Source: Pseudooceanicola nanhaiensis (lineage in GTDB: Bacteria; Pseudomonadota; Alphaproteobacteria; Rhodobacterales; Rhodobacteraceae). From it: a DNA stretch of 64,000 bases. Position numbers and translations under genes: made by a program. The stretch is from assembly GCF_020171315.1 (NCBI RefSeq), contig NZ_JAIUZP010000001.1:310001-374000 (forward strand), written 5' to 3'. Shown piece after piece: positions 28,395 through 43,285 of the stretch. A model generated the notes under the pieces. It searched no databases, had not been told where the DNA came from, and saw only the letters and a list, made by a program, of their open reading frames with translations. How positions within the stretch are numbered: position 1 is the stretch's first letter; the number at the start of each line of letters is the position of its first letter.

Positions 28395-29377
28395 CATTGC
28401 TCGCCCCGTATGTCCGGATCCTCGCCCGCGGCCCCGGCCGCTCGCGCAACCTGACCCGGGGCGAGGCCGAAACCGCGATGACCCTGATCCTGCAGGGCGA
28501 TGTCTCGCGCGAGGCGGTGGGCGCGATGCTGATGCTGATGCGCTACCGCGGCGAGAACGCCGAGGAACTGGCAGGTTTCGTCGCGGCCATGCGGCGCGAA
28601 TGCAGGGCCTATGCCGATCTGCCCGTGGCGGTGGACTGGCCGTCCTACGCGGCGGGGCGCACGCGCGGCCTGCCGTGGTTCCTGCTGGCGGCCAAGCTGG
28701 TGGCCAAGGCGACCGGCCCGGTGCTGCTGCATGGCTGGAACTCGCATCAGGGCAGCAACGCCTCCGTCCGCGAGGCGCTGCCCGGGTTGAACATCCCCGT
28801 TGCCAGCGACCCTGAGGCGCTGAAGGCCGCGCTGGAGACCTCCGGCATCGCCTATCTGCCGGCAGAGACCGCCGCCCCGCGCAGCTTTGACCTGCTGCGC
28901 CTGCGCGAGGTGCTGGGCCTGCGTTCGCCGGTGAACACCGCGCTGCGGCTGCTGAACCCGGCCAATGCGCCGGTCTCGCTGCAGGGGGTGTTCCACCCGC
29001 CGTTCCTGACCCTTCAGGCCGAGGCGGCGCATCTGCTGGGGCAGCCGAACCAGACCGTCCTCAAGGGCGGCGGCGGCGAGTTCGAGCGCAACCCGGCCAA
29101 GCCGGTGCCGCTGCACGGCCTGCGCAACGGCACCCCGTGGGAGGGCACGGCGCCTGCGCTCCTCGACGAGACCCGCCGCCTGAGCGAGACGACCGAGGAC
29201 CCGGCCATGCTGGCCGCCGCGTGGAACGGCGGCTACGTCGATCCCTTCGTCACCAGCATCATCACCGGCACTGCCGCCCTTGCCCTGCTGACCGCGGGCA
29301 AGACCGATTGCCTCGATCAGGCGCAGGTCATGGCCGAGGTTCTCTGGGCCGACCGGGACGTGCTGGCACCGGTCTGA
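28391..29377 (+). CDS. TrpD2/YbiB-like glycosyltransferase-family protein
   Basis: 328 residues related to anthranilate phosphoribosyltransferase (GlyTR N-terminal helices LTRGEAETAMTLILQG; then a phosphoribosyl-binding fold). The TrpD phosphoribosyl-diphosphate loop is not conserved (VLLHGWNSHQGSNASVRE), as in E. coli YbiB, which binds nucleic acid rather than acting in tryptophan synthesis. It is coupled to nasA by an ATGA overlap, a linkage seen in many Rhodobacteraceae, but its role in nitrate use is unknown. Confidence 0.82.
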   Translation: MTLLAPYVRILARGPGRSRNLTRGEAETAMTLILQGDVSREAVGAMLMLMRYRGENAEELAGFVAAMRRECRAYADLPVAVDWPSYAAGRTRGLPWFLLAAKLVAKATGPVLLHGWNSHQGSNASVREALPGLNIPVASDPEALKAALETSGIAYLPAETAAPRSFDLLRLREVLGLRSPVNTALRLLNPANAPVSLQGVFHPPFLTLQAEAAHLLGQPNQTVLKGGGGEFERNPAKPVPLHGLRNGTPWEGTAPALLDETRRLSETTEDPAMLAAAWNGGYVDPFVTSIITGTAALALLTAGKTDCLDQAQVMAEVLWADRDVLAPV

Positions 29378-29380
29378 CCG

Positions 29381-29464
29381 CCCGTCGCGGCAGGATCGTC
29401 TCGGCCAGTCTGTCACGGTAGGCCCGTCTCGGCTGGATCGTCACAGCAGGCCCGTCACAGCAGG
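29381..29464. repeat. Six-copy 14-bp tandem repeat
   Basis: Consecutive 14-base units: CCCGTCGCGGCAGG, ATCGTCTCGGCCAG, TCTGTCACGGTAGG, CCCGTCTCGGCTGG, ATCGTCACAGCAGG, CCCGTCACAGCAGG, with a decaying seventh. The array fills the gap between two convergent genes and runs into the last codons of the protease-nuclease gene. Confidence 0.8.
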
Positions 29465-31446
29465 ATCGACTCCAGCCCGGCAAGGGGGATCAGCGGCCGG
29501 TCGGGCGCTTCCTCCGTCTTCTCCAGCGCATCCGCCGCCACCAGTGGGCCGAAGTCGAGCCCGGTGATCTGCGCCAGATCGCGCAGCCGCAACTGGAACG
29601 TCCGGTAGCCCGCGAAGGCAAAGCCCTCCACCGCCTCGCTGCGGCCCCGGTCCTGGAGGTAGCCGCGCAGCAGTTTCTCCTGACTCAGCAGGTAGGCGGT
29701 GCAATGCAGGCGGATCACCTCGTCCCGGTCCTCCGCCAACATGGCGACCACCTTCCAGAAGGCCATCGGCAGGGCGGCGCCGAGCTCGGGGATCTCCTCG
29801 TCGATCTCGGAGAGCACGGGCCCGGACAGCACACAGGCGCGGAAGCCGAAGGTGCGGGTGCTTTCGAGGATATAATCCTCCAGCCCCAGCCACATCTCGG
29901 GCTCCCGGTTCATGCCGGGCAGCTGCGGCGCCGCGTTGGTGTAGTGGAAGCTGTCGAGGTTGGCGCGCATCGCCTCCTCGTCCGTGGCGCCCCAGTTGGT
30001 CGCCGCGCGCCGCACCATGTGGCCCCGGTCAAAGCCGCTTCCGGTGTAATCGGTGTTGCCCAGCTGGAGCGCATAGGGAATGCGGGCGTCCTTCCACCAG
30101 TAGGAATTGGCGCGTTTGATCGCGCGGGTCTTCTCTCCGTCGATGTTCAGCGCGGCCACCACCGGCAGCCGCCGTGCGCGGGACTGGAGAACCGAGAAAT
30201 GCTGATACCGCAACTCGTGCGGGCGGTCGTCGGTGGCATCCTCCGGCCGGGCGAGGTCCAGCAGGGCGGGCACGCCGGGCAGGGGCACCGGCGCCACGGC
30301 GAGGAAGTCGGGATCGTAGCCTCTGCGCCCGGCAAAGAAGGCGGCGTCGTGCCGCTGGCCCGCTTCGTCTTCCGCCGGGGGGGCATCGGGCAGGGCGGTG
30401 CCCGGCACCTGCCCACCGGCGATCTCGTCCAGCAGGGCGCGCAGCGTGGCGGCGGAAACGGCGCTGTTGCCCTCGCCGTACTTGCCCGCGAAATGCAGCC
30501 CCACCGCGGCCTTCTGCTCCAGCGAGATCAGCGGCGAGCCGGAGTTGCCCCCCAGCGTGGTACAATCGTGGCTGAGCACGGAGAGCCCCGGCGCGATCAT
30601 CAGCTTGCCGGGGGAGAAGCGTTTCACGTCGTAGAGCCCCTGGAAGTAGCGTTCCATATAGGTGACGTTGTTGCGGTAGGGATCGGCCGCCGGGTAGCCC
30701 ACGGTGGCGACCCATTCATCGGCGGCACCGGGCGCGGGGGCCAGCGGGATCGGCTCCAGCTGCGGTGCGCCGTTGCCCGCGGGCAGGGCGATCCGGGCAA
30801 GCGCCACGTCGGCGGCCATGTCCTCGGCCAGGTAGGTGAACCTCTCCACGGGGCAGAGCAGCGCCGGGTTCGCCGCCACGCCCTCCTCCTCGCCGAAGTC
30901 GATGAAGGCGCCATAGCGGGCATGGTTGAAGGGGTTGTAGAGAAACACGCCCGCCCCGGTCCAGCTGCGCCGGGCGACCAGCTTGGCCACGTGGCGGTTG
31001 GTCACGATCAGCAGGCCGTCAGGCCCATCGGTGCCGATCACCCACCCGGTGCCGCCCCAGCTCTGATCGTGGTTGGCGAACTCGATCCGCCCGACGGAGG
31101 CGATGCGCGGCTCCACCGCTGCGATCTTCAGGTCGATGTCGGCGGGGAAGTCGCTGCCGGGCCCGGCCAGCGTCGTGGCACCCACGACCTTGCCGTTCTG
31201 CACCATCAGCGGCGGGCGCCCGGCGATCTTCACGATCGCCTCCAGCGCCGTGGGGACCATGAGGCCCGCGCTTTCCAGCTGATCCGGGGCGGTGTTCAGG
31301 GCGGTGCGGATCTGACCGGCGTCGAGGTTCAGTTCCCGCAGCACGGGCAGGTCCCGGTCGAGCGCCGCGGCGGTCCGGTCAAAGGCCCCCTTGGCAGAGA
31401 GGCGGGCGAGGTTGGAAATGCTTTCCTGAAAGGCTTGATCGGGCAT
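29455..31446 (-). CDS. Fusion of a trypsin-like serine protease and a NUC1-type DNA/RNA endonuclease
   Basis: 663 residues, no signal peptide, so cytoplasmic. Residues 1-120 are mostly helical and unassigned. The S1/V8-like protease spans about 120-345 with a full triad: His152 (VTNRHVA), Asp213 (ADVALARI) and Ser302 (GGNSGSPL). The endonuclease_NS/NUC1 domain spans about 405-625 with DRGHMV (catalytic His476) and HYTNAAPQ (metal-binding Asn504). The ATG at 31446 has GGAGGA upstream; a TTG at 31473 is weaker. Last gene of the four-gene protease/STAND cluster, 39 bases after the STAND gene. I infer a latent nuclease effector controlled by proteolysis. Confidence 0.88.
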   Translation of the reverse strand: MPDQAFQESISNLARLSAKGAFDRTAAALDRDLPVLRELNLDAGQIRTALNTAPDQLESAGLMVPTALEAIVKIAGRPPLMVQNGKVVGATTLAGPGSDFPADIDLKIAAVEPRIASVGRIEFANHDQSWGGTGWVIGTDGPDGLLIVTNRHVAKLVARRSWTGAGVFLYNPFNHARYGAFIDFGEEEGVAANPALLCPVERFTYLAEDMAADVALARIALPAGNGAPQLEPIPLAPAPGAADEWVATVGYPAADPYRNNVTYMERYFQGLYDVKRFSPGKLMIAPGLSVLSHDCTTLGGNSGSPLISLEQKAAVGLHFAGKYGEGNSAVSAATLRALLDEIAGGQVPGTALPDAPPAEDEAGQRHDAAFFAGRRGYDPDFLAVAPVPLPGVPALLDLARPEDATDDRPHELRYQHFSVLQSRARRLPVVAALNIDGEKTRAIKRANSYWWKDARIPYALQLGNTDYTGSGFDRGHMVRRAATNWGATDEEAMRANLDSFHYTNAAPQLPGMNREPEMWLGLEDYILESTRTFGFRACVLSGPVLSEIDEEIPELGAALPMAFWKVVAMLAEDRDEVIRLHCTAYLLSQEKLLRGYLQDRGRSEAVEGFAFAGYRTFQLRLRDLAQITGLDFGPLVAADALEKTEEAPDRPLIPLAGLESILL

Positions 31447-31485
31447 CTGGGGTCCTCCGATGGGGCCGGGCAAACGGGATGGGGT

Positions 31486-34400
31486 CTATGCGTCGGGGCT
31501 GATAATCCTGCGCAGGTCGGTGTCGTGGGCGGTCAGAACGGCGAGGGCGGCGGCCTGATCCCCGGGCACGCCCGCGCCAAGGAAGCCGCGCAGCGCCCGA
31601 AGGCCCGCCGCCGCGGGCTCCACCGCGCTGCCGCGTGCCTTCAGCGCGCGGTCCGAGCGCGGGCCGTGGCGGCGCAGCAGTTCGGCAGGCGGTGTCGCCT
31701 CGTCAGGGGAGCGGTCCCAGAAGAGCAGGGCGTTGCGGGCGCTTGCGATCGGGTCCGTCTCGCCCAGCAGGCGGTCGAAGAGCGCGTGGCTGACGTGATC
31801 CACCGGCGGCCCGGTCCAGCCCTTGGGCTTGCGGCCATGGGACCAGCGGCCTGCCACCGTGCGCCGCCAGCGCTCGGCGGCGGCCGCGATCAGCGGCAGG
31901 TCGGGCACCGCGTGATGCAGGGCAAAGCCGTTGGACCATTCCGCCGTCAGGCCAAGTGCGCCCAGCAGGTCGATGTGATCGCCGTAGGCCTCTGACCAGC
32001 CGGTCGATGTCGGGGGGGCGTCCACGCGGTAGCGGGTCTGGAGCGCCTCCGCGATGGCCGGGGCCTCCATGGGGATGCGCTCCAGCCAGCTTTTGACCGC
32101 CTCTCCCCCGGTGGACAGCACCCGTTCGACGAGCGGGCTGCGATAGGGGTTGAGCGGCATCAGGTCCAGCGCCCGTTCCGCGGCACTCGCGGCAGGGCTG
32201 GCGGGCAGCGCGGTGCGGCCGCTGACGAGCGAGGTCACCTCGCGCTCGGCCATGGCGCGGGCCTCTGCGGCGTCGATCCCGAAGGGCAGCACCGCGAGGT
32301 GATCGGTGATCAGTCCCGCGCTGCGCAGCAGTTCCGACGGCGGGCTGATATCCTCGGGCAGGGCGGTCAGCAGGAGCAGGTCCAATGCGCCGCCGGCCAG
32401 CCCCTGCCTCTGGGTCTGGACGAAGAGATCCAGCAGCGGGAACAGCCGGTCCGGCACCGCGAGGTGATCCTGAAGGGCAGTGGGGCGGAACTCGGCCAGC
32501 ATCTCCAGCAGGACGCGCCCGGTCAGCAGCCGCTCCGGGTCTTTCGGCGGCAGCAGGGCGAGAATCTCCTCCTGTGTCAGCGCCTCGAAGAGCCGCCGCG
32601 CGGTGCCCCAGTGACCGGACAGCCAGAGATAGGTCAACGCCGTCAGGCCGGCCTCGGAGCCGGCGGTGAAACTGCCCTCGAACCCCTTGTCGAGAATATA
32701 GCCCGCCTCGCGCTGCGCTCCCTCCAGCAACATCATGGAGAGGTCGCGCACGGCGCGCGCGTCCGGGGTGCCCGGCGGGGCGGGGCGGCGGGCGGTGACG
32801 GAGAGGATGCGCCGGGTCCCGGGGTCGTAGAAGAACCGCGGGCCCGGCGCCTCGACCGGCATCAGGTCCTGCGCCTGTGCCCCCGGCGGCAGGATCACCG
32901 GCGTGCCGAAGGTGTCCTCGATCGGCATGAGGAACGGCTCGTCGATGCTGTCCGGCGGGGCGGATTTAAACAGCGAGACGTCTTCGCCCGGCACGTCGCC
33001 CGCTGTCGGCTCCGCTGTCTCTTCCGATCCCGCGCGCCCGAAGTCCGAGCGCAGGCCCATGGCCTGTCGCACCGCATCGCGGACCGCGAGGGGCAGTTCT
33101 GCCAGCGTATCCTCCGTGACGCCGTCTAGTGCCTCGGGCGGCAACGCGGGCAGGGGATCGCCGTAGCGGGTCAGTTGCAGCCGGTGATAGAGCGCTGCAG
33201 CCGGATCGCGCTCCGCGAACCAGAGCGCGGCCGCGCGGTTGATCGCCTCCGTCTCGGGGCCGCGATCGGCGTAGATCAGCGGCAGGAAGGCCCGGCGCAC
33301 GTCGGCCCGGTGGCAGAGCCAGCCGCCGACCTCCTGCACCAGCCAGTGGTGGGTCGCGAGCTCTTCCAGAAGGCTGCGGGCCTCGAACTCGGTCAGTGTC
33401 AGGTCCAGCGCGGGGGCCACGACCTCGCGCAGGCTGTCCACGTTGATCCGCGCCAGCACGAGGCCCTCGTTCGCGATCCGGCGCAGGGTGTCCGGCACGC
33501 GCGACAGGATCGCGCGGTAGAGGTAGCCCGCGATGGCGATGCCGCCCGGGGCCGGGGTGTCTGCGGGCAGGTCGAGGCTGCCGCCGTCGCGCGCCTTGGC
33601 CGCCAGACGCAGCAGCAGGGGATTGCCGCCCGCGACGGCCAGCACCTCGGGCCAATGGGCCTTGGGCACGTTGTTCTCGGCCAGCAGTTCCTCGGCGGCG
33701 GCATCCTCCAGCCCGGCGAGGTGCAGCCGCCCGGCGCGGCGCTCCGGCGCGGGGTCGAGCGCATCGCCGCGCCCGGCCGAGATGACGGCCATCGGGGCCA
33801 GCCCGTAGCGCAGCATCAGGTCGAGGTGATCGAAGAGCGTCAGCACATGGGTCTCGCCGCGCGAGCGCAGCACCTCCAGCGTGTCGAGCACGACCAGAAG
33901 CAGCCGCCCGCTGTCGCCCACCGCCGCGCCCATGCCGCTCAGCAGGGCCTCCGGCCGGGCGCGCGCCGCGCCGCGTCCCCGGGTCGAGGCGGCCTCCTCG
34001 GCGCTCTGGAGGCGCAGCGCCTGCAACTCCGCCGCCCGATCGGGCAGCGCATCTGCAAGTTGACGCGAGATCTCGGCGAAGAAGCCGTGCAGGTCGAGGA
34101 TGTCGAGCCCGCCGCGATCGAAGTCGAGCCGCACGAGAAGCGGGGCGAGCTCCAGCCGGGCGGTCTGGATGACCTTCTCCAGCAGGTAGCTCTTGCCGAT
34201 CCCCGGCAGGCCCGAGACATGCAGCGCGCGGGCCGGGGCCGCGAGCAGCGGGCTTTGCAGCCAGTTGGCCATCTGTGCCAGCTCCGCCTCGCGCCCGAAG
34301 AAGCCGGAAGCCAATTGAGCGTCGTTGCGGGCGGCAGCCTGCAGGCCGTTCATCCGGGCGCGCAGGGCGGGGAGGAGCGGCGCCCCCGGGGCCGGGTCCC

Positions 34401-34788
34401 CGGCGCGGGCCAGCGGGATGACGAGCATTTCCAGCGCCGCCGCATCCGCGCTCTCCTCCAGCGCCGCCTGCAACCTGTCGGGGGCGAAGGGCCCCTGTCC
34501 CAGCAGGGCGGCCTCGATCGGGGTTTCGCCGGTCAGCCGGGCGCTGTCGATCCCCGCGATCTGCTGGCGGCGCGGACGCGGGCGCATGAGCCAGAGTTCG
34601 TATCCATCCTCCTGCTGGACCGTGCAGGCGGCCCGCAGGAGCGAGAGCAGCGAGGCAACGTGCAGCGGATCGCGCAGCGCCGTGCCGGTGGCGGTCAGCG
34701 CCTCACGCGGCGAGAAGCTGCCCTGCAGCGCCGCCCAGTCGAGAAGCGGGGCGGCCTCGTCGTGCAGTTGGTCGTCGGGGGCCATCAT
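31486..34788 (-). CDS. Large STAND-type ATPase
   Basis: 1100 residues. An unassigned N-terminal part (1-150) is followed by a P-loop domain introduced by FFGREAEL: Walker A GLPGIGKS (193-200), Walker B LLLVVLDTLEV (Asp302), and the STAND/NLR-type GGNPLLL (387-393). The rest (about 450-1100) is helix-rich, compatible with a sensor or repeat superstructure, but no clear repeat period is visible. STAND ATPases are signal-triggered oligomerising switches (Avs, NLR, bNACHT relatives). The ATG at 34788 has GGAG upstream and overlaps the preceding protease stop (ATGA). No TIR, transmembrane or nuclease domain is fused to it. Confidence 0.85.
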   Translation of the reverse strand: MMAPDDQLHDEAAPLLDWAALQGSFSPREALTATGTALRDPLHVASLLSLLRAACTVQQEDGYELWLMRPRPRRQQIAGIDSARLTGETPIEAALLGQGPFAPDRLQAALEESADAAALEMLVIPLARAGDPAPGAPLLPALRARMNGLQAAARNDAQLASGFFGREAELAQMANWLQSPLLAAPARALHVSGLPGIGKSYLLEKVIQTARLELAPLLVRLDFDRGGLDILDLHGFFAEISRQLADALPDRAAELQALRLQSAEEAASTRGRGAARARPEALLSGMGAAVGDSGRLLLVVLDTLEVLRSRGETHVLTLFDHLDLMLRYGLAPMAVISAGRGDALDPAPERRAGRLHLAGLEDAAAEELLAENNVPKAHWPEVLAVAGGNPLLLRLAAKARDGGSLDLPADTPAPGGIAIAGYLYRAILSRVPDTLRRIANEGLVLARINVDSLREVVAPALDLTLTEFEARSLLEELATHHWLVQEVGGWLCHRADVRRAFLPLIYADRGPETEAINRAAALWFAERDPAAALYHRLQLTRYGDPLPALPPEALDGVTEDTLAELPLAVRDAVRQAMGLRSDFGRAGSEETAEPTAGDVPGEDVSLFKSAPPDSIDEPFLMPIEDTFGTPVILPPGAQAQDLMPVEAPGPRFFYDPGTRRILSVTARRPAPPGTPDARAVRDLSMMLLEGAQREAGYILDKGFEGSFTAGSEAGLTALTYLWLSGHWGTARRLFEALTQEEILALLPPKDPERLLTGRVLLEMLAEFRPTALQDHLAVPDRLFPLLDLFVQTQRQGLAGGALDLLLLTALPEDISPPSELLRSAGLITDHLAVLPFGIDAAEARAMAEREVTSLVSGRTALPASPAASAAERALDLMPLNPYRSPLVERVLSTGGEAVKSWLERIPMEAPAIAEALQTRYRVDAPPTSTGWSEAYGDHIDLLGALGLTAEWSNGFALHHAVPDLPLIAAAAERWRRTVAGRWSHGRKPKGWTGPPVDHVSHALFDRLLGETDPIASARNALLFWDRSPDEATPPAELLRRHGPRSDRALKARGSAVEPAAAGLRALRGFLGAGVPGDQAAALAVLTAHDTDLRRIISPDA

Positions 34789-36563
34789 GTCCACTCCCCC
34801 CGGGCCTGCCGCGCCAGTGTCCGGATGCGGGCTGCGACCTCGCCGATCTGGCTGCCGTCATAGGTGCCCGCCTGTGCGGCGATCCCGGCCAGAACGGCCT
34901 CGGCGTGATCCTCCACGGTGGTCCGGTCCCAGCCGAGCGCCAGATCGCGGGCCATCTCGGTCAGGGTGAAGACGACCTCGGCGCGGGTGAAGGGGCCCAG
35001 CACCTCGCGCATCAGGCAGGGGCGGCGGGCGCTCTGTGCCTCCCCCAGCGAGGTCACGAGCTGCGAGGTCAGTGCCACGCTCTCGAACCCGGCGAGGACG
35101 ATGCGGATCAGGGGGCGTGGGGCGCAGGCGGCGATCAGGTGTTCCAGTTGCAGTTGCTGGTCGCGGGGCAGGTCGCCCTCTGCCGTCTCGACGTAGAGCC
35201 AGATCGGACGTGAGGAGCTCTCGGCCCGGGCCTGAAGGCTGGCAGCCAGCTGGCGGGCGGCGTCCTGCAAGACGGCAATGTCGGTGGTCTCGCCCGGGGC
35301 GACACCGGCGCGGGCCTTGGGCAGCGCCCCGGCCCCCAGCACCGTTTCGGCCACCAGCGCCACGAGGTCCCCGCTGCCCTCTTCCGGGGCGATGCGGTGG
35401 GTTTCATCCGGAGCCGCCATCTGGCGCAGGTAGAATTGCAGCACCGGGTAGGAGAAGCTGATGCCCGCCGACTGCGCCGTGTCGAGCCGCCGGATCCAGA
35501 GCCCGCGCAGCATTTCGGCCTCGCCTGCCACGAGGGCGGCGATCCCGTCGAAATAGGCGGCGCGCCCGATCAGGATATGTCCGTCGATGGAGCCGTCATG
35601 CGACCACGGATAGCGCGGCTGGCTGTCGTTGCGCAGCCGGGCGGCAAAGTCGTCGTTGGCGACGAACTGGTCATGGGGCACGAGGCGGCGGCTGTTGTCC
35701 CAGCGGCCCTGATGCAGACCGACGAAGCGCAGTTCCCGGTCGAAGCCCGCCCCGCCGGAGGAGCCCTCGGCCGAGAGCGCGTCATGCTTGAGGCGGATGT
35801 CCTGCGCAGTGGCCCGCAGCAGGCGCCCGAACTCGATCCCGGCCTCCTGCCCGGCAGGGAAATGCACCAGCACGAAGCGGTGGGTGCCCGGCGGGATCTG
35901 CGCGAGGTTGGAAAGGTCGACCCGCCCGAAGAGATGCCCCAGCGGCCGGTCAAGCCGCAGCAGGGCCACGTCCGGATGGGTCAGCGCCGCGCCAGCGGGT
36001 GGCAGCAGGCCGCGCTCTTCGTCGGGATGGGGCGGCAGGGAGAAGGCGCGCCGCGCCGCATAGCTCTGGCCGTCGGCGGCCTGCACGCGGATCGGCTGCC
36101 CCTGCGCCCCGGTCAGGACATGGGCCGCCGTCAGCACCAGCCGGGGCGAGATCAATACCCCGCTGCCCGCGACCACGTTGTTCACCTTGATCCGGCAGCG
36201 AAAGGCCCGGCTGCGGCGCACGAAGAGGGCAAGCGCCTCCTCGTCGAAGCCGGGCCCCGTGACGGCGCCGAATTCCCCCATCGCAAGGGCCCAGTCGGGC
36301 TGCGCCGGCAGGGCCCCGTCCGGCAGGTCGATCCCGTGCTGCAGCAGGAAGGCCGCGAACTTGCCGGTCAGCGCGTCCTTTTCGAGGTAGCGGATCAGAA
36401 GCTCCGCCAGCGGCGTGCCGAAGATCTCGGCCGTGGCACGCAGGGTGGCAAGGTCCTGGATCACCTGCGGGTCGTCGTAGGTGACACGCAGGGCCTGTTC
36501 CACCAGCTCGGGGCGGGTGTCGATGACCGGCTGAAGCGCCGCCTCTGTCAGCCCCGCCGCCAC
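34785..36563 (-). CDS. Trypsin-like serine protease with helical N-terminal and degenerate C-terminal domains
   Basis: 592 residues, cytoplasmic. The helical N-terminal module (about 1-80) resembles effector-associated (death-like) adaptor domains in size and position. The S1-type protease (about 95-330) has His148 (LTAAHVL), Asp198 (PDVALLRL) and Ser269 (EGSSGGAGF). The C-terminal 330-592 has alpha/beta character (RPIWLYVETAEGD, RIVLAGFES) but no Walker A, reminiscent of inactive NTPase-like regions (inference). The start is GTG 36563, three bases after the subtilase stop and with a weak ribosome-binding site, so coupling is likely. Its stop overlaps the STAND start. Confidence 0.85.
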   Translation of the reverse strand: MAAGLTEAALQPVIDTRPELVEQALRVTYDDPQVIQDLATLRATAEIFGTPLAELLIRYLEKDALTGKFAAFLLQHGIDLPDGALPAQPDWALAMGEFGAVTGPGFDEEALALFVRRSRAFRCRIKVNNVVAGSGVLISPRLVLTAAHVLTGAQGQPIRVQAADGQSYAARRAFSLPPHPDEERGLLPPAGAALTHPDVALLRLDRPLGHLFGRVDLSNLAQIPPGTHRFVLVHFPAGQEAGIEFGRLLRATAQDIRLKHDALSAEGSSGGAGFDRELRFVGLHQGRWDNSRRLVPHDQFVANDDFAARLRNDSQPRYPWSHDGSIDGHILIGRAAYFDGIAALVAGEAEMLRGLWIRRLDTAQSAGISFSYPVLQFYLRQMAAPDETHRIAPEEGSGDLVALVAETVLGAGALPKARAGVAPGETTDIAVLQDAARQLAASLQARAESSSRPIWLYVETAEGDLPRDQQLQLEHLIAACAPRPLIRIVLAGFESVALTSQLVTSLGEAQSARRPCLMREVLGPFTRAEVVFTLTEMARDLALGWDRTTVEDHAEAVLAGIAAQAGTYDGSQIGEVAARIRTLARQARGEWT

Positions 36564-36566
36564 GGC

Positions 36567-38198
36567 TCAGAACACGCCGAGATGGCCGGAGAGCGCGGGC
36601 CGTGCCGCCAGCTTCGCGGCCAGATCCGGGCTGGCGGGGTCGGGCTTCAGGATCGCCTCGGTGACGGCGCCCGCCTCTGCGGCGCGGCCCCGGGCGCCAT
36701 GGCGATAGGACAGCCAGAGCATCTCGGGCGCGTAATCGGCCAGATCGGGCCCGTAGTCGTCGAGCGCCTGTGGCGCATTGGCGGCAAGATGTTCCTGCAA
36801 CACCATGTCGGTGCTCTGGACGCCCGCCGCGACGGGCGGCGTGGCGGCCTCGTGCCCGGTGGCGGCCGTGGGTAGGGCGGCGTTCAGCAGGCGCTCTGCA
36901 TCCAGCACGCCCGCACCCAGCGAGGTGCTGCCGTTCCAGACCGGGGGCTTCACCATGCCATGGGTCGCGCAGTGGACGAACATCGCCTGCACCGTGGTGC
37001 CTGCCGCATCGGCCTTGGCCTTCAGCGCGGCGCGCCCGCCGTGGCGCGCGACCCAGAGCGCGGCACAGCCCGCCGTCAGCGAGGTGGCCAGCGTGGTGCC
37101 CTGCGCCGCGCGGATGCCGTTGTCCGGGTCGGAGGCCGCGTTCTTGGCCGCGCCCCAGACATTCTCTCCGGGGGCAGAGAGGGTGACGGCGGGCCCGCTG
37201 CCGGTCTTGCCCCAGGGCGTGAGCGACTGGGTCAGCGCGGCCACCGCGGTGCAGATGCCCTGCGGCGCATAGGCGGCCGGGAAGACCACCCAGGGCCAGC
37301 AGTTGCCCGCGGCGCAGCAGATCACCACGCCCTCCGCCACCGCGTCCCGCAGGGCCTTTTCCGTCGCGGCTACCCGCGTCGGGCCGCCAAGGGCCATGGC
37401 GATGACATCGGCCCCCTGGGCCACCGCATGGGCGATGGCGGGGCCGATCGTCGTCTGGTTGAAGTTGATCACCGACTTGATCGCCCGGATCGGCAGCACC
37501 TTGGCCTCCGGCGCGGCCCCGGTGATGGCGCCATGGCCCCCGGTCTCGCCGCCCGCATCGGCGGTGCCCCGGCTGGCGATGACGGAACAGACCAGCGTGC
37601 CATGGCCGGGATGCTTCATGAGGCCGGTCACGAAGCGGTCCGAGGCATCGGTGCCGCCCTCGACATAGTTCTTCTGCCCCGCGCTGCGGATCACGTCCCA
37701 GAGTTCCTGATGGGTGGAGTGGCCGGTGTCGATCACGGCGACGGTCGCCCCCCGTCCGCGGCTCAGCGCCCAGGCCTGCGGGGTGCGGATCACCGGATGG
37801 ACCCAGCCAAAGGGCCGGATGTCGGTGCGCGGCGTCTCGCAGAGAGAGAAGCTCTCGGTCGTGCCGTCCCCGACCGCTGCCGCGCCATAGAGCGAATCCC
37901 GCAGAACGGGGTTGGCATCGCTGGCCCCGAGGGCCTCCTTTAGGGCGCGGGCGAAGGCAAAGACCTGCGGCTCCTGCCCCTCGGCGGGAATGCCGGGGAA
38001 GGTGACGAAGAAGAACCGGTCGGCCTCTTCCTCGAAGGCGGGCGTGACGAGGGGGGCTGCGCCCGGCAGCAGCGCCGTCAGCGCGGCGGCAAGGTCCTGT
38101 GGGGTGCGGGGGGCGTCGAAGACAAGTTCGACGATCAGGCTCTCTTCTGCGTCAAGGTCGGGCAGGCGCTGGAGCGCGGCAAAGGCTTCGGCTGGCAT
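36567..38198 (-). CDS. Subtilase-fold (S8) protein with Thr at the nucleophile position
   Basis: 543 residues. A cytoplasmic N-terminal domain (1-140) precedes the S8 fold. Asp157 (VAVIDTG), His199 (HPGHGTLV) and oxyanion Asn299 (CAAGN) are present, but the GTSMATP block reads GTTLATS, so position 369 is Thr instead of Ser. Either Thr acts as nucleophile or the protein is a pseudoprotease. A strong ribosome-binding site (GGAGGAGAG) precedes the ATG, marking it as the first gene of the four-gene cluster. No signal peptide. Confidence 0.88.
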   Translation of the reverse strand: MPAEAFAALQRLPDLDAEESLIVELVFDAPRTPQDLAAALTALLPGAAPLVTPAFEEEADRFFFVTFPGIPAEGQEPQVFAFARALKEALGASDANPVLRDSLYGAAAVGDGTTESFSLCETPRTDIRPFGWVHPVIRTPQAWALSRGRGATVAVIDTGHSTHQELWDVIRSAGQKNYVEGGTDASDRFVTGLMKHPGHGTLVCSVIASRGTADAGGETGGHGAITGAAPEAKVLPIRAIKSVINFNQTTIGPAIAHAVAQGADVIAMALGGPTRVAATEKALRDAVAEGVVICCAAGNCWPWVVFPAAYAPQGICTAVAALTQSLTPWGKTGSGPAVTLSAPGENVWGAAKNAASDPDNGIRAAQGTTLATSLTAGCAALWVARHGGRAALKAKADAAGTTVQAMFVHCATHGMVKPPVWNGSTSLGAGVLDAERLLNAALPTAATGHEAATPPVAAGVQSTDMVLQEHLAANAPQALDDYGPDLADYAPEMLWLSYRHGARGRAAEAGAVTEAILKPDPASPDLAAKLAARPALSGHLGVF

Positions 38199-38308
38199 CG
38201 GACTCTCCTCCGGGACCGGGAAACGACTGTGATAACGACTTCATGCAATATGAGTCGCATCAGAGCACAATTCTGGGTTGCGAGTCAGTCCGGAATTCCC
38301 CACCCGCG

Positions 38309-38369
38309 ATGGTCCCGGGCCCATGGTCGGTCCCATGGTTGCGCACGGGGCGGTCCCATGGTCGGGCCG
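38309..38369. repeat. Degenerate 12-bp tandem repeat at the other end of the protease cluster
   Basis: Four units starting ATGGT: 38309-38322, 38323-38334 (ATGGTCGGTCCC), 38335-38357 (with an 11-base insertion) and 38358-38369 (ATGGTCGGGCCG). They lie between the LysR gene stop and the subtilase gene. Confidence 0.6.
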
Positions 38370-38372
38370 AGG

Positions 38373-39272
38373 TCAGGCCCAGATCTCGGCGATCTCGGCG
38401 CTCAGCCAGTCCCGGAACCGGGCGAAGGCGGGCAGGGAGAGGCTGCGCTCCGGGTAGATGAGGGTATAGGCCTCGCCGCTCTCCATCTCCCGGTCCGAGG
38501 CGCGGCGCAGGCGGCCGCTGCGTAGCGGCTCACGGGCGAGGATCTCGGGCACCAGCGCCACGCCCAGACCGGCGATGGCGGCATCCAGCACCATGTCGAA
38601 GTGATCGAAGCGGGCGCCCCGCAACGTGCGCCGCGGATCGAGCCGCGCATGGCGGAACCAGTCGGGCCAGAGCGTGGGCCGGGTGGACTGCTGGAGCAGG
38701 GGCAATGAGAGAAGGTCATCGTCGCTCAGCCGTTGCCGGGGGCCGATCAGCGAGGGCGCGGCCACGACGATCAGCGTCTCGTCCAGCAGGTGCAGGTGAT
38801 GCGCCCCCCGCGCCCGGTGGGTGGAGCGCTGAATGGCGAGGTCGAAGGGCTCTGCCTCGAAGTCCACGCGCCCCAGCCGGGCGGCCATGTCGAAGGTCGC
38901 GCCGGGCAGGGTGGACTGGAAGGCGCTCATCCGCGGAATCAGCCAGCTGCGCCCGAAGGTGGGCAGCACCGCAATGCGCAGAACCGCGCTTTGCCCGCCA
39001 AAGGCCATCACGCTCACGGCCGCCTCGTTGAGCCGCGCGAGCAGGTTTTCCGCGTCCCTCTGGAAGGCCCGGCCCGCGTCCGACAGCGCCAGCCGCTGCC
39101 GCACCCGGTGGAAGAGCGCCACGCCCAGCCGGTCCTCCAGCGTGCCGATGGAACGGCTGACCGCGCTCTGCGTCAGGCCCAGATCCCGCGCGGCGCCCGT
39201 GGTAGTGCCGATCCGCGCGCAGGAGCAAAACGCCTCAAGCTCGGAGACCGAGGGAATATAGGACTTGCGCAT
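38373..39272 (-). CDS. LysR-family regulator beside gcdH
   Basis: 299 residues. The N-terminal winged helix (SELEAFCSCARIGTTTGAARDLGLTQSAVSRSIGTLEDRLG) is typical; the C-terminal effector domain is of the GcvA-like branch. It is divergent from gcdH with 108 bases between starts, the classic LysR layout, so it probably controls glutaryl-CoA degradation. It runs in the same direction as the protease cluster but is separated by 174 bases and a repeat array. Confidence 0.92.
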   Translation of the reverse strand: MRKSYIPSVSELEAFCSCARIGTTTGAARDLGLTQSAVSRSIGTLEDRLGVALFHRVRQRLALSDAGRAFQRDAENLLARLNEAAVSVMAFGGQSAVLRIAVLPTFGRSWLIPRMSAFQSTLPGATFDMAARLGRVDFEAEPFDLAIQRSTHRARGAHHLHLLDETLIVVAAPSLIGPRQRLSDDDLLSLPLLQQSTRPTLWPDWFRHARLDPRRTLRGARFDHFDMVLDAAIAGLGVALVPEILAREPLRSGRLRRASDREMESGEAYTLIYPERSLSLPAFARFRDWLSAEIAEIWA

Positions 39273-40772: not shown

Positions 40773-42119
40773 TTACTGGGCGTCCTTCGGCCCGAGGGCC
40801 GAGAGACCCTTGAGGATGTCGATCGCATAGGCGAGCTGGTAGTCCTCGTCGCGCAGCTTGGCCGCGGCTTCCGCCTTCTCGCGGTCGGCCTCGATCTGCT
40901 TGATCTCGTCCTCGGTCAGCGAGTCGTTGTTCAGCGCGCCGCGCAGGTCGGCTTCCGACCGGGTGCGCTTGACGGCGGAGGCGGGTTCGTCCTCTTCCGC
41001 CTCGGGGCGCCGCGAGGGCTGGTTCACCACGATGTCGGGCGAGATGCCGAGGTTCTGGATCGACCGGCCCGAGGGCGTGTAGTAGCGCGCGGTGGTCAGG
41101 CGCATTGCGCCGTCGCCGCGCAGCGGCATCACCGTCTGGACCGAGCCCTTGCCGAAGGACTTGGTGCCCACGACGATGGCGCGGCGGTGGTCCTGCAGTG
41201 CCCCCGAGACGATCTCGGACGCGGAGGCGGAGCCGCCGTTGATCAGCACGACGATCGGCTTGCCGTCGATCAGGTCGCCCTCGGTGGCGTTGTAGCGCTC
41301 GCCGTCTTCCGGGTTGCGGCCGCGGGTCGAGACGATCTCGCCCTTGTCGAGGAAGGCGTCGGACACCCGGATCGCCTGGGTCAGCAGGCCGCCGGGGTTG
41401 TTGCGTAGGTCGATGACCACGCCGTTGATCGCGTCGAGACCGCCGTGCGCCTCGATCTGCTCTTTCAGGCCGGCCTCGAGGTTCGGGTAGGTCTGATCGT
41501 TGAAGGTGGTGATCCGCAGCACGACGGTGTCGCCCTCGGTGCGGGCACGCACGGCGGTCAGCTTGATGGTGTCGCGGATGATCGAGACGTCGAAGGGCTC
41601 GGTCTCGCCTTCGCGGACCACGGTCACGACGATCTCGGAGCCGACGGGGCCGCGCATCATCTCGACCGCGTCGTCCAGCGTCAGGCCCAGCAGGCTTTCG
41701 CCGTCCACGTGGGTGATGAAGTCCCCGGCCTCGATGCCGGCGAGGGCGGCAGGCGTGCCATCCATGGGCGAGACGACCTTGACGAAGCCGTCTTCCTGCG
41801 TGACCTCGATGCCGAGGCCGCCGAATTCGCCGCGGGTCTGCACGCGCATGGCGGCGGCATCATCGGGCGAGAGATAGCTGGAATGCGGGTCGAGCGAGGT
41901 GAGCATGCCGTTGATGGCGGCCTCGATCAGTTCGCCCGGGGCGACTTCCTCGACGTATTGCGCGCGGATGCGCTCGAAGATGTCCCCGAAGAGATCAAGC
42001 TGTTCATAGACGGAGGCCTTGCTGTCCGCTTCCTGTGCCAGGAGGGGCGCTGCGATCTGCGTCGTGACCAGAAGGCCGGTCGCGATGCCGCCCGCGGCGG
42101 CCAGTAGGGTCTTTCTCAT
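40773..42119 (-). CDS. ctpA: Carboxy-terminal processing protease (S41)
   Basis: 448 residues. A signal/anchor segment (1-29) precedes the helical cap and a PDZ domain (about 97-180, GEFGGLGIEVTQ). The catalytic core has the NGGSASASEI Ser motif (294-303) and Lys324 in SFGKGSVQ. It is a periplasmic tail-specific protease. It is coupled by an ATGA overlap to the upstream EnvC-like gene, an order (gpmI-envC-ctpA) conserved in many alphaproteobacteria and consistent with control of peptidoglycan hydrolysis. Confidence 0.94.
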   Translation of the reverse strand: MRKTLLAAAGGIATGLLVTTQIAAPLLAQEADSKASVYEQLDLFGDIFERIRAQYVEEVAPGELIEAAINGMLTSLDPHSSYLSPDDAAAMRVQTRGEFGGLGIEVTQEDGFVKVVSPMDGTPAALAGIEAGDFITHVDGESLLGLTLDDAVEMMRGPVGSEIVVTVVREGETEPFDVSIIRDTIKLTAVRARTEGDTVVLRITTFNDQTYPNLEAGLKEQIEAHGGLDAINGVVIDLRNNPGGLLTQAIRVSDAFLDKGEIVSTRGRNPEDGERYNATEGDLIDGKPIVVLINGGSASASEIVSGALQDHRRAIVVGTKSFGKGSVQTVMPLRGDGAMRLTTARYYTPSGRSIQNLGISPDIVVNQPSRRPEAEEDEPASAVKRTRSEADLRGALNNDSLTEDEIKQIEADREKAEAAAKLRDEDYQLAYAIDILKGLSALGPKDAQ

Positions 42120-43285
42120 TGCTCTCCATCCTTCATTCCGGCGTTGAGGCCGGCGAACCACTCTGCGGGGTCCTCGGGCGTATTGCCCTGCCTCACTTCC
42201 AGGTACAGCGTTTCCGTCCGGTCCGATCCGGCGCCACCGGCGCTCTGGGTCAGGATTGCGCCAATGTCCGGATCCTGTCCGCCCATCAGCCCGACGGGTG
42301 CGCCAGCCTGTAGCACCTCGCCCGCCGAACCATAGACGACATCCAGTCCGGCCAAAACGAACAATACGCCCGCCTGCGGCTCAAGGAGCATCACGTTGCC
42401 GTAATCCAACAGCGGGCCGCGATATCGGACCGTTGCGGCGGTCGGCGAGGTGACGATGGCGCCGGGCCGGGTGGCCAGCACGACGCCCGGGCGGACGATC
42501 CCCGCGGCGTCCGCCTCGCCCGCACGGCGCAGCAGCGCGCCCTGCACGGGCAGCGGGATGCGCCCCTTGCGGTGGATCACGTCCGGGAGCGAGCCGGGGG
42601 CTTCGTTTTCGGCGATGTCGCTGAGGCCCGAGGCGAAGGCGCTCAGCGTCTCGGTCGAGGCGATGAGCAGCGCCGTCTTGATCGGGTCCTCGGTGAAGCG
42701 TTTCGGCAGGGCGGTCCGGTCGGCGATGGCCTTGCTGAGCTCTGCGCGAGCCTGCTGGACGCCGTCCATGCCCCGGGCAAGCTGGTCGGCAGCGCTCTGC
42801 TGCAACTCGCGCAGGTCGCTGGCCTCCTGCAGCTTGGCGCGTAGGGCCTGCGCCTTCTTGTTCAGCGCGGGCGCCACGTCGGCGAGGATCATGCCAGAGC
42901 GCGCGGTGCCGAGCGGCCCGTCCGGGTGCACCATCTGCGCAGGCGGCGGCGAGGTGGCGACGGTCAGCAGAACGCCCATCAGCTGCGCGGTCTCGGCATC
43001 GCTGGCCTCCAGCTCGCGCCGGATCTCGCGTTCGCGCATCGAGGCACGGCGCAGCCCGTCGCGCATGGCCGAAAGCCCCGCCTCGTAGGCGCGCAGCGTT
43101 TCCGTCAGGGCGCGGACCCGGTCGCGGGCTTCCTCGGCGCCATCCAGCGTGCGGGCGGCGGCCTCCAGCTGGTCGGCGGCGGCGCGCGCGGCCTCGGCGG
43201 GTGTGGGCGCGGCGCTTTGCGCCTGCGCCGCGCCGCTGGCAAGGGACAGCGCCAGACCTGCGAGGAGAGCGCGCAGCGAGATCAT
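42116..43285 (-). CDS. EnvC-like murein hydrolase activator
   Basis: 389 residues. Signal peptide (1-22), long coiled coil (about 28-190, for example ARTLDGAEEARDRVRALTE) and a C-terminal LytM/M23-fold domain with degenerate active site (ETLYLEVRQGNTPEDPAEWF lacks the metal-binding His set). Such proteins activate amidases at the septum. It overlaps gpmI upstream and ctpA downstream by four bases each. Confidence 0.9.
   Translation of the reverse strand: MISLRALLAGLALSLASGAAQAQSAAPTPAEAARAAADQLEAAARTLDGAEEARDRVRALTETLRAYEAGLSAMRDGLRRASMREREIRRELEASDAETAQLMGVLLTVATSPPPAQMVHPDGPLGTARSGMILADVAPALNKKAQALRAKLQEASDLRELQQSAADQLARGMDGVQQARAELSKAIADRTALPKRFTEDPIKTALLIASTETLSAFASGLSDIAENEAPGSLPDVIHRKGRIPLPVQGALLRRAGEADAAGIVRPGVVLATRPGAIVTSPTAATVRYRGPLLDYGNVMLLEPQAGVLFVLAGLDVVYGSAGEVLQAGAPVGLMGGQDPDIGAILTQSAGGAGSDRTETLYLEVRQGNTPEDPAEWFAGLNAGMKDGEQ

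What the first reader, a model, noticed from the sequence alone, without database searches (positions are those of the whole stretch)
29455..38198. Four-gene protease/STAND-ATPase/nuclease operon: candidate conflict system
Seen: four leftward genes in one block encode a subtilase-fold protein, a trypsin-like protease, a 1100-residue STAND ATPase and a trypsin-NUC1 nuclease fusion. Coupling is tight (3-base gap, ATGA overlap, 39-base gap), with one strong ribosome-binding site at the first gene. All lack signal peptides. Known: STAND ATPases act as triggered oligomerising switches in bacterial immunity (Avs, bNACHT), and trypsin-like proteases serve as activators in gasdermin systems. Inferred: infection or damage triggers the STAND protein, a protease relay is switched on, and the nuclease domain is released to destroy nucleic acid. 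I do not recall a described system with this exact gene set, but could not search.
Basis: partly seen in the sequence, partly recalled or inferred. Interest (0 to 1): 0.92.

Follow-up and report, generated by a model that had tools for sequence, protein, structure and literature searches.

The report
Four-gene bacterial cell-suicide protease relay
A marine bacterium carries four linked genes for a sensor switch, two protein-cutting enzymes (one fused to a nucleic-acid-cutting part) and a protease-like protein whose key active-site residue is swapped; they look like a variant of a recently described bacterial self-destruct system, and nothing here shows yet whether it fights viruses.

Summary
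In detail: four co-directional, tightly coupled genes encode an S8 subtilase-fold protein, a trypsin-like protease, a STAND/NLR-fold ATPase and a trypsin-NUC1 fusion. The unit is conserved: trypsin, STAND and trypsin-NUC1 keep their order in loci from several bacterial orders, and gene distances correlate strongly. This three-gene core has the architecture of LypABC, the CARD-NLR-like system published in April 2026 (PMC13236601), and overlaps the NucA-trypsin 'System 3' predicted in 2020 (PMC7159879), so the core is not new. Less expected: (1) a fourth gene in Rhodobacterales-type loci, an S8 protein with invariant Thr at the catalytic Ser position; its relatives in other operons keep Ser, and most (8 of 10) are followed by a trypsin domain; (2) protease triads are intact in every aligned copy, while the nuclease's catalytic Asn was lost about three times, so the nuclease is probably not the obligatory payload; (3) between two sister species STAND diverges fastest, most in its C-terminal repeats, as expected of a sensor. 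Best reading: an NLR-triggered protease relay that kills or lyses the cell, for anti-phage defence or, as in Caulobacter, gene-transfer-agent release. Homology to LypABC was not aligned; no function was tested.

The parts
36567..38198 (-). P0001, S8 subtilase-fold protein, 543 aa; D157, H199, N299 kept; Thr369 at the catalytic Ser position; extra N-terminal (1-128) and C-terminal (about 430-543) regions
   Evidence: best NCBIfam match T7SS_mycosin, below its cut-off
34785..36563 (-). P0002, LypA-like: helical bundle 7-75, trypsin-like domain about 108-310 (H148, D198, S269), alpha/beta C-terminal domain about 335-590
31486..34794 (-). P0003, LypB-like STAND/NLR ATPase, 1102 aa; Walker A K201, Walker B D304; alpha-helical repeats to the C-terminus
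29455..31446 (-). P0004, LypC-like trypsin (H152, D213, S302) fused to a NUC1/EndoG-type nuclease (DRGH 473-476, N504)
38199..38372 (-). 174-base upstream region; about 100 bases before the S8 start are nearly identical in the M. alkaliphilus locus L010; GGAGGAG ribosome-binding site. Probable promoter region, not shown
   Evidence: the sigma-70 scan of 29200-38600 found no site

Best explanation
A CARD-NLR / LypABC-type cell-suicide operon with a fourth gene. Proposed chain: (1) The STAND protein (P0003) sits as an inactive monomer; its fast-evolving C-terminal helical repeats recognise a trigger (phage product, gene-transfer-agent component or damage) [inferred]. (2) With ATP it oligomerises [inferred from the NLR fold]. 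(3) Its N-terminal domain recruits the N-terminal helical bundle of P0002 and clusters the trypsin domains, which become active [inferred; LypA-LypB contact was shown in Caulobacter by others]. (4) P0002 and the trypsin domain of P0004 act as a two-step protease relay on each other and on cell targets; this is the catalysis kept in every aligned copy [conservation shown, reaction inferred]. (5) In copies with an intact nuclease site, such as this one, the nuclease adds nucleic-acid damage, but it is not obligatory [erosion shown, role inferred]. (6) The S8 protein, under purifying selection yet with Thr for Ser, acts as a substrate-holding regulator, scaffold or inhibitor of the relay rather than as a normal serine protease [inferred]. 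Outcome: death or lysis of the cell.
For: Co-occurrence: trypsin then STAND then trypsin-NUC1 on one strand in 27 loci (window, two plasmid loci, 24 genome loci found by the STAND search, so STAND presence is by construction); LypA-like gene in 26 of 27, LypC-like gene in 24 of 27, all four misses at contig ends. LypA-STAND reading frames overlap in 26 of 26. Distance matrices of the four genes correlate at r = 0.72-0.90 over 14 loci. STAND and trypsin-NUC1 are one ORF in Falsiroseomonas (L034). P0003 model (pLDDT 83.9) matches plant resistosomes, CED-4, Dark and Apaf-1, among ORC/Cdc6-type ATPases. Trypsin triads intact in 26 of 26 and 24 of 24 rows. Catalytic residues lie near the positions reported for LypA S262, LypB K230/D335 and LypC S296/H471/N505: here S269, K201/D304, S302/H476/N504. 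Sister-species comparison: S8 Ks 0.28, Ka/Ks 0.11; STAND Ks 0.65, Ka/Ks 0.41, identity 0.52-0.53 over residues 822-1025 against 0.87 over 204-303; six neighbouring genes Ks 0.18-0.31.
Against: No expression, phage or lysis data. LypABC protein sequences were not held, so the link rests on architecture and residue positions, not on an alignment; the H-to-N spacing in the nuclease differs by 6 residues from LypC. The N-terminal bundle of P0002 was not shown to be a CARD: the profile found no solved CARD, and one of 23 members hit PYRIN, at E 0.11. P0002's C-terminal domain gave 3% probability against the STAND NTPase profile, and the N-domains of P0002 and P0003 showed no relation. Two-hybrid tests in Caulobacter saw no LypC contact with LypA or LypB. 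Flanking families that were listed look largely metabolic (25 of 116 families shown).
Confidence: 0.62

Rival explanations
1. Lysis hub for gene transfer agents (GTAs): the operon was co-opted, as LypABC in Caulobacter, to lyse cells that make GTA particles.
For: LypABC is required for GTA lysis in C. crescentus (PMC13236601). The window genome has the GTA marker GTA_TIM, and so have 8 of 9 Rhodobacterales-type hosts searched.
Against: GTA_TIM did not ring in 5 of 5 searched hosts of the three-gene core outside Rhodobacterales, nor in one Roseovarius host with the core (15 of 24 loci were given, 14 could be searched). The operon is sporadic (2 of 147 relatives, one of them the window's own genome), whereas GTA clusters are, from recall, nearly universal in Rhodobacterales. 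The STAND sensor evolves fast.
Confidence: 0.2
2. Nuclease-payload model: proteolysis frees the NUC1 domain, which destroys nucleic acid and is the killing step, as in the gated nucleases of Hachiman and AVAST.
For: The window copy has DRGH and N504 intact. Protease-gated nucleases are shown in other systems (PMC12799240). A separate NUC1 gene stands in the Polaromonas operon (L049).
Against: N504 lost in 9 of 23 rows with about three independent changes; DRGH lost in L004; trypsin triad lost in none of the 24 rows. Nuclease residues were dispensable for lysis in Caulobacter.
Confidence: 0.25
3. The S8 protein is an active peptidase with a threonine nucleophile, the first cutter of the relay.
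For: Asp, His and oxyanion Asn are all kept (17 of 17 rows), which a decayed pseudoenzyme need not keep; Ka/Ks is 0.11 in one species pair.
Against: I know of no subtilase with a Thr nucleophile (recall; not searched). The 10 relatives outside this clade that were aligned over the site all have Ser. S8 is not seen in 2 Rhodobacterales-type loci and in 7 of 7 other loci, so the relay can run without it.
Confidence: 0.15
4. Housekeeping or secreted proteolysis with a chance neighbouring ATPase.
For: S8 and trypsin families are common exoenzymes (recall); the window neighbours are metabolic or regulatory.
Against: No signal-like N-termini, conserved operon across orders and on plasmids, sporadic distribution.
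Confidence: 0.03

Closest known systems
LypABC of Caulobacter crescentus, CARD-NLR-like (PMC13236601: abstract and outline, sections 9 and 13, and passages seen)
   Same: Three proteins: CARD-trypsin-ATPase-like (LypA), NLR-like ATPase with TPR-like repeats (LypB), trypsin-endonuclease (LypC); similar sizes and catalytic positions; peptidase Ser and Walker residues needed for lysis there.
   Different: The words subtilisin, subtilase and S8 family do not occur in that text; homology not aligned here; function in the window host unknown.
NucA-trypsin 'System 3' of Kaur et al. 2020 (PMC7159879: section 32 and passages seen)
   Same: Mostly alphaproteobacterial; trypsin and NucA fused or in one operon; S8 and STAND in some; a proteolytic cascade deploying the nuclease was predicted.
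   Different: There S8 is described as flanking NucA in one polypeptide and the STAND as fused to a trypsin and a death-like domain; here they are separate genes, and S8 has Thr.
Lysobacter gasdermin CARD-NLR system (Wein et al. 2025; not held, known only through PMC13236601 and recall)
   Same: NLR-like ATPase plus CARD-protease driving a death effector after phage infection.
   Different: Gasdermin effector there; trypsin-NUC1 and an S8 protein here.
Avs1 / Hachiman nuclease-protease pairs (PMC12799240: abstract and outline, section 7, and passages seen)
   Same: Trypsin-like protease, in Avs1 with a STAND sensor, coupled to a nuclease.
   Different: MBL-fold nuclease encoded separately there; NUC1-fold nuclease fused to its own trypsin here.
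PADLOC models
   Same: P0004 matches the model named nacht (2.4e-10, residues 67-342, mainly its trypsin part) and PDC-S45 (0.0017); P0002 matches LmuA (2.7e-5, residues 123-166) and Avs1b (0.032).
   Different: The matches lie in or around the trypsin domains; P0001 and P0003 match no PADLOC model up to E 1.

Membership tests
CARD-NLR / LypABC type | NLR-like STAND ATPase with Walker A/B and helical repeats | tested here: met
   K201 and D304 invariant in 24 of 24 rows; model matches NLR/apoptosome structures
CARD-NLR / LypABC type | CARD at the N-terminus of the protease | tested here: inconclusive
   Model shows helices 7-16, 18-28, 38-48, 52-62, 66-75; no solved CARD by profile; PYRIN in 1 of 23 at E 0.11; the 50 listed rows of the whole-chain fold search are trypsin-like folds
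CARD-NLR / LypABC type | Active trypsin domain in the CARD protein | tested here: met
   Residues only: H148, D198, S269 in 26 of 26; activity not tested
CARD-NLR / LypABC type | ATPase-like C-terminal domain of LypA lacking Walker motifs | tested here: inconclusive
   Alpha/beta domain 335-590 in the model; profile match to the STAND NTPase only 3%
CARD-NLR / LypABC type | LypC: trypsin-endonuclease fusion | tested here: met
   Pfam Trypsin_2 and Endonuclease_NS; triad 24 of 24
CARD-NLR / LypABC type | Sequence homology to LypA, LypB, LypC | not tested
   LypABC sequences not held; only residue positions from PMC13236601 compared
CARD-NLR / LypABC type | Triggered cell death or lysis; phage defence | not testable with these tools
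   Needs bench work
NucA-trypsin System 3 | NucA-type nuclease and trypsin-like peptidase, fused or in one operon | tested here: met
Peptidase family S8, active | Asp-His-Ser triad | tested here: not met
   D and H kept, Thr in place of Ser in 17 of 17; so filed as S8-fold, not as an active serine protease
AVAST type 1 | Avs1b protease and MBL-fold nuclease | tested here: not met
   Best Avs1b match E 0.032 over 39 residues in PADLOC and 0.076 in NCBIfam; no MBL family among the Pfam hits
Gasdermin CARD-NLR | Gasdermin gene in the operon | tested here: not met
   None among the four genes or nine flanking genes scanned with NCBIfam at E 1e-10: nitrate ABC transporter ATPase, NirB-like, nitrate reductase/formate dehydrogenase-like, glycosyl transferase family protein, LysR, acyl-CoA dehydrogenase, C-terminal processing peptidase, phosphoglycerate mutase, and one (42119-43285) without a hit

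The most novel reading that the evidence does not exclude
In the Rhodobacterales-type branch of CARD-NLR systems the subtilase was turned into a standing regulator: when the trypsin domain moved between the S8 protein and the nuclease, the S8 catalytic Ser became an invariant Thr and the protein was kept, under purifying selection, as a catalytically altered lock or platform that binds the relay's substrates or proteases until the NLR sensor fires. It would be a bacterial counterpart of protease-like regulators in animal death pathways.
Probability: 0.3. Interest if true: 0.75.

Novelty: new variant of a known kind. Interest (0 to 1): 0.52.

Why it matters
It ties a candidate seen in raw sequence to a very recent system class and widens the picture: loci with the three-gene core were found in Burkholderia, Pseudomonas, Falsiroseomonas and actinobacteria, including hosts where a GTA marker was not found. 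It gives testable predictions about which enzyme does the killing (protease rather than nuclease) and about a kept protease-like protein with an altered nucleophile. Whether such systems serve defence or GTA release is open, and hosts with and without GTAs make it testable.

Tried and rejected
Rejected: 'no described system with this gene set'. PMC7159879 and PMC13236601 describe overlapping sets. I also recall, from no call, that DefenseFinder lists CARD_NLR subtypes including a subtilase one; a paper search for those names found nothing in the held library, so S8-containing CARD-NLR systems may already be catalogued elsewhere.

Rejected: a homotypic adaptor shared by the proteins. Profile comparison found no clearly related N-terminal domains (best 10% probability); only the two trypsin domains are related (96%).

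Led nowhere: viral contigs for STAND and S8 (no relatives by those pattern scans); the PDB CARD search by sequence; promoter scan; empty-site comparison. LysR and the acyl-CoA dehydrogenase gene stay together in 10 of 10 other-species loci of the genus, but the nitrate reductase and glycosyl-transferase genes of the other side do not appear there (only weak 26-37% hits to the transporter and NirB-like genes in some), so no clean empty site was seen (these 10 were chosen from the 20 other genomes with the LysR match, M. alkaliphilus not counted). Defence islands: 123 of 155 flanking ORFs were scanned (up to four each side per locus; ORFs over 700 aa and the window's own were left out, leaving 132, and 9 more were dropped from the list by hand); PADLOC hits at E 1e-10 were few (HamA models 1 member each, AbiU 1, mad3 4, mad8 2 and others; 25 of 28 families shown) and no control set was run, so enrichment is neither shown nor excluded. 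LypABC sequences could not be obtained for alignment. A whole-genome search with the S8 profile in 5 hosts lacking it found nothing, but it had no positive control.
Full report
WHAT IS THERE. The four genes are as described. In transcription order: S8 protein P0001, trypsin-like P0002, STAND ATPase P0003, trypsin-NUC1 P0004; gaps 3, overlap, 39 bases. Upstream of P0001 about 100 bases are nearly identical in locus L010 of a sister species, ending in a GGAGGAG ribosome-binding site. That sister genome (G005) is taken to be Maritimibacter alkaliphilus because the named contig of L012 has the same length and the same match; the window genome is placed in the same genus. The operon is sporadic: P0003 matches 2 of 147 searched relatives, the window's own genome being one, and 2 of 385 genomes of the class, again one its own and the other weak (34% over part of the protein). 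The S8 protein matches 9 of 345 family genomes, own included; besides the own copy only two are above 60% identity.

A CONSERVED UNIT. A scan of the GTDB contigs with a four-sequence STAND alignment gave 24 loci; with the window and two plasmid loci that makes 27. Presence of STAND is by construction. The LypA-like gene is found in 26 of 27 and the LypC-like gene in 24 of 27; the four misses are loci where the contig ends (L017; L022, L024, L035). Two LypC-like genes are cut by a contig end (L013, L019). LypA and STAND frames overlap in 26 of 26. The S8 gene is in 17 of 27: 17 of 20 Rhodobacterales-type loci (absent in L026 and L028, not judgeable in L017; L019 is titled only Alphaproteobacteria) and 0 of 7 others (Burkholderia two, Paraburkholderia, Pseudomonas, Falsiroseomonas, Microbacterium, Nocardioides; L032 has only 1.2 kb upstream). 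A whole-genome search with the S8 profile found nothing in 5 of 5 hosts without it, but without a positive control. Distance matrices of the four genes correlate at r 0.72-0.90 over 14 loci, with 0 of 2000 permutations as high; this shows shared history, not function. In Falsiroseomonas the STAND and trypsin-NUC1 proteins are one open frame (L034).

DOMAINS. P0003: AlphaFold2 model with mean pLDDT 83.9; Foldseek's best PDB matches are NRC3 and NRC2 resistosomes, CED-4, Dark and Apaf-1, mixed with ORC/Cdc6-type ATPases (best E 3e-5, low whole-chain TM-scores). P0002: pLDDT 87.5; helical bundle 7-75, trypsin domain, alpha/beta C-terminal domain; the 50 listed fold matches are HtrA/DegS-, Esp- and similar proteases. 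The bundle is where LypA has its CARD, but I could not show that it is a CARD. The two trypsin domains are related to each other (96%). PADLOC: P0004 matches a model named nacht at 2.4e-10 over residues 67-342, P0002 matches LmuA at 2.7e-5 over residues 123-166; P0001 and P0003 match nothing.

WHICH ENZYMES ARE KEPT. Trypsin triads: 26 of 26 rows for P0002, 24 of 24 for P0004. Nuclease: DRGH in 22 of 23 rows that cover it (lost in Paracoccus L004); the Asn that aligns with that of EndoG in 14 of 23 (otherwise 7 Val, 1 Ile, 1 Ala), with three changes on the LypC tree by parsimony. S8: Asp157, His199 and Asn299 in 17 of 17, Thr369 at the Ser position in 17 of 17; the thermitase alignment puts this residue opposite the catalytic Ser. 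Two further copies also have Thr, one of them identical to L014 in the tree. Ten more distant relatives have Ser in 10 of 10, and the Thr copies fall on one side of a split with support 0.96; an eleventh relative (L009) did not cover the site in that alignment, though its own frame has a GTS motif. In 8 of the 10 a trypsin domain follows S8 in the same protein; in the other two (L043, L046, cut loci) a NUC1 part precedes it. The Polaromonas plasmid has S8-trypsin, LypA-like, STAND and a solitary NUC1 gene in that order: the same parts with the trypsin domain placed differently.

EVOLUTION BETWEEN SISTER SPECIES. Against M. alkaliphilus, six neighbouring genes have Ks 0.18-0.31. S8 has Ks 0.28 and Ka/Ks 0.11; LypC 0.34 and 0.16; LypA 0.51 and 0.22; STAND 0.65 and 0.41. 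Within STAND, identity falls from 0.87 (204-303) to 0.52-0.53 (822-1025). Raised Ks suggests that part of the operon was exchanged by recombination; the pattern over the protein fits a diversifying sensor. Across 13 four-gene loci the NTPase is the best kept STAND region (0.48) and the C-terminal end the least (0.26). This is one species pair and no codon-model test was made.

KNOWN SYSTEMS. PMC13236601 (April 2026; abstract, sections 9 and 13 and passages seen) reports LypABC of Caulobacter crescentus: CARD-trypsin-ATPase-like LypA, NLR-like LypB, trypsin-endonuclease LypC. Peptidase Ser residues and Walker residues are needed for lysis, nuclease residues are not, and the system serves release of gene transfer agents. 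PMC7159879 (section 32 and passages seen) predicted NucA-trypsin systems with S8 and STAND parts in some. PMC12799240 (abstract, section 7, passages seen) shows protease-gated nucleases in Hachiman and AVAST. The match to LypABC here is by architecture and residue positions; no LypABC sequence was held for alignment. GTA_TIM is present in the window genome and in 8 of 9 Rhodobacterales-type hosts searched but in 0 of 5 others, with Caulobacter ringing as control (15 of 24 loci given, 14 searched), so GTA release is unlikely to be the purpose of the core everywhere.

CONTEXT. Flanks in the window are metabolic or regulatory. Among 123 flanking ORFs of other loci few are defence-like (capped lists); no control was run. 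Two scans of viral contigs found no relative. GC of the operon windows is 0.71-0.73 against 0.63-0.71 around them.

VERDICT. Real, conserved, and a new variant of a known kind. The S8 protein with Thr, and the loss of the nuclease site but not of the protease sites, are the parts worth a specialist's time. Function, trigger and outcome remain inferred.

Noticed in passing
L034:9962-14983: STAND and trypsin-NUC1 fused in one open reading frame in Falsiroseomonas algicola.
   Followed up: partly
L033:15067-17019: A patatin-like phospholipase gene follows trypsin-NUC1 directly in Pseudomonas sp. RIT-PI-r, a possible membrane effector of the same operon.
   Followed up: no
L004:12264-14237: Paracoccus plasmid copy: trypsin triad kept, DRGH motif of the nuclease gone.
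   Followed up: partly
L007:8779-10704 and L008:8671-10572: Trypsin-NUC1 genes without STAND or LypA-like genes annotated within about 9 kb.
   Followed up: no
L005:1-5478: The Paraburkholderia plasmid copy lies beside DUF262, three-Cys-motif partner and phage Gp37/Gp68 family genes, a possible defence neighbourhood.
   Followed up: no
   Followed up: partly
38320-38362: Three CCATGG-centred repeats upstream of the operon, absent from the same place in M. alkaliphilus.
   Followed up: no
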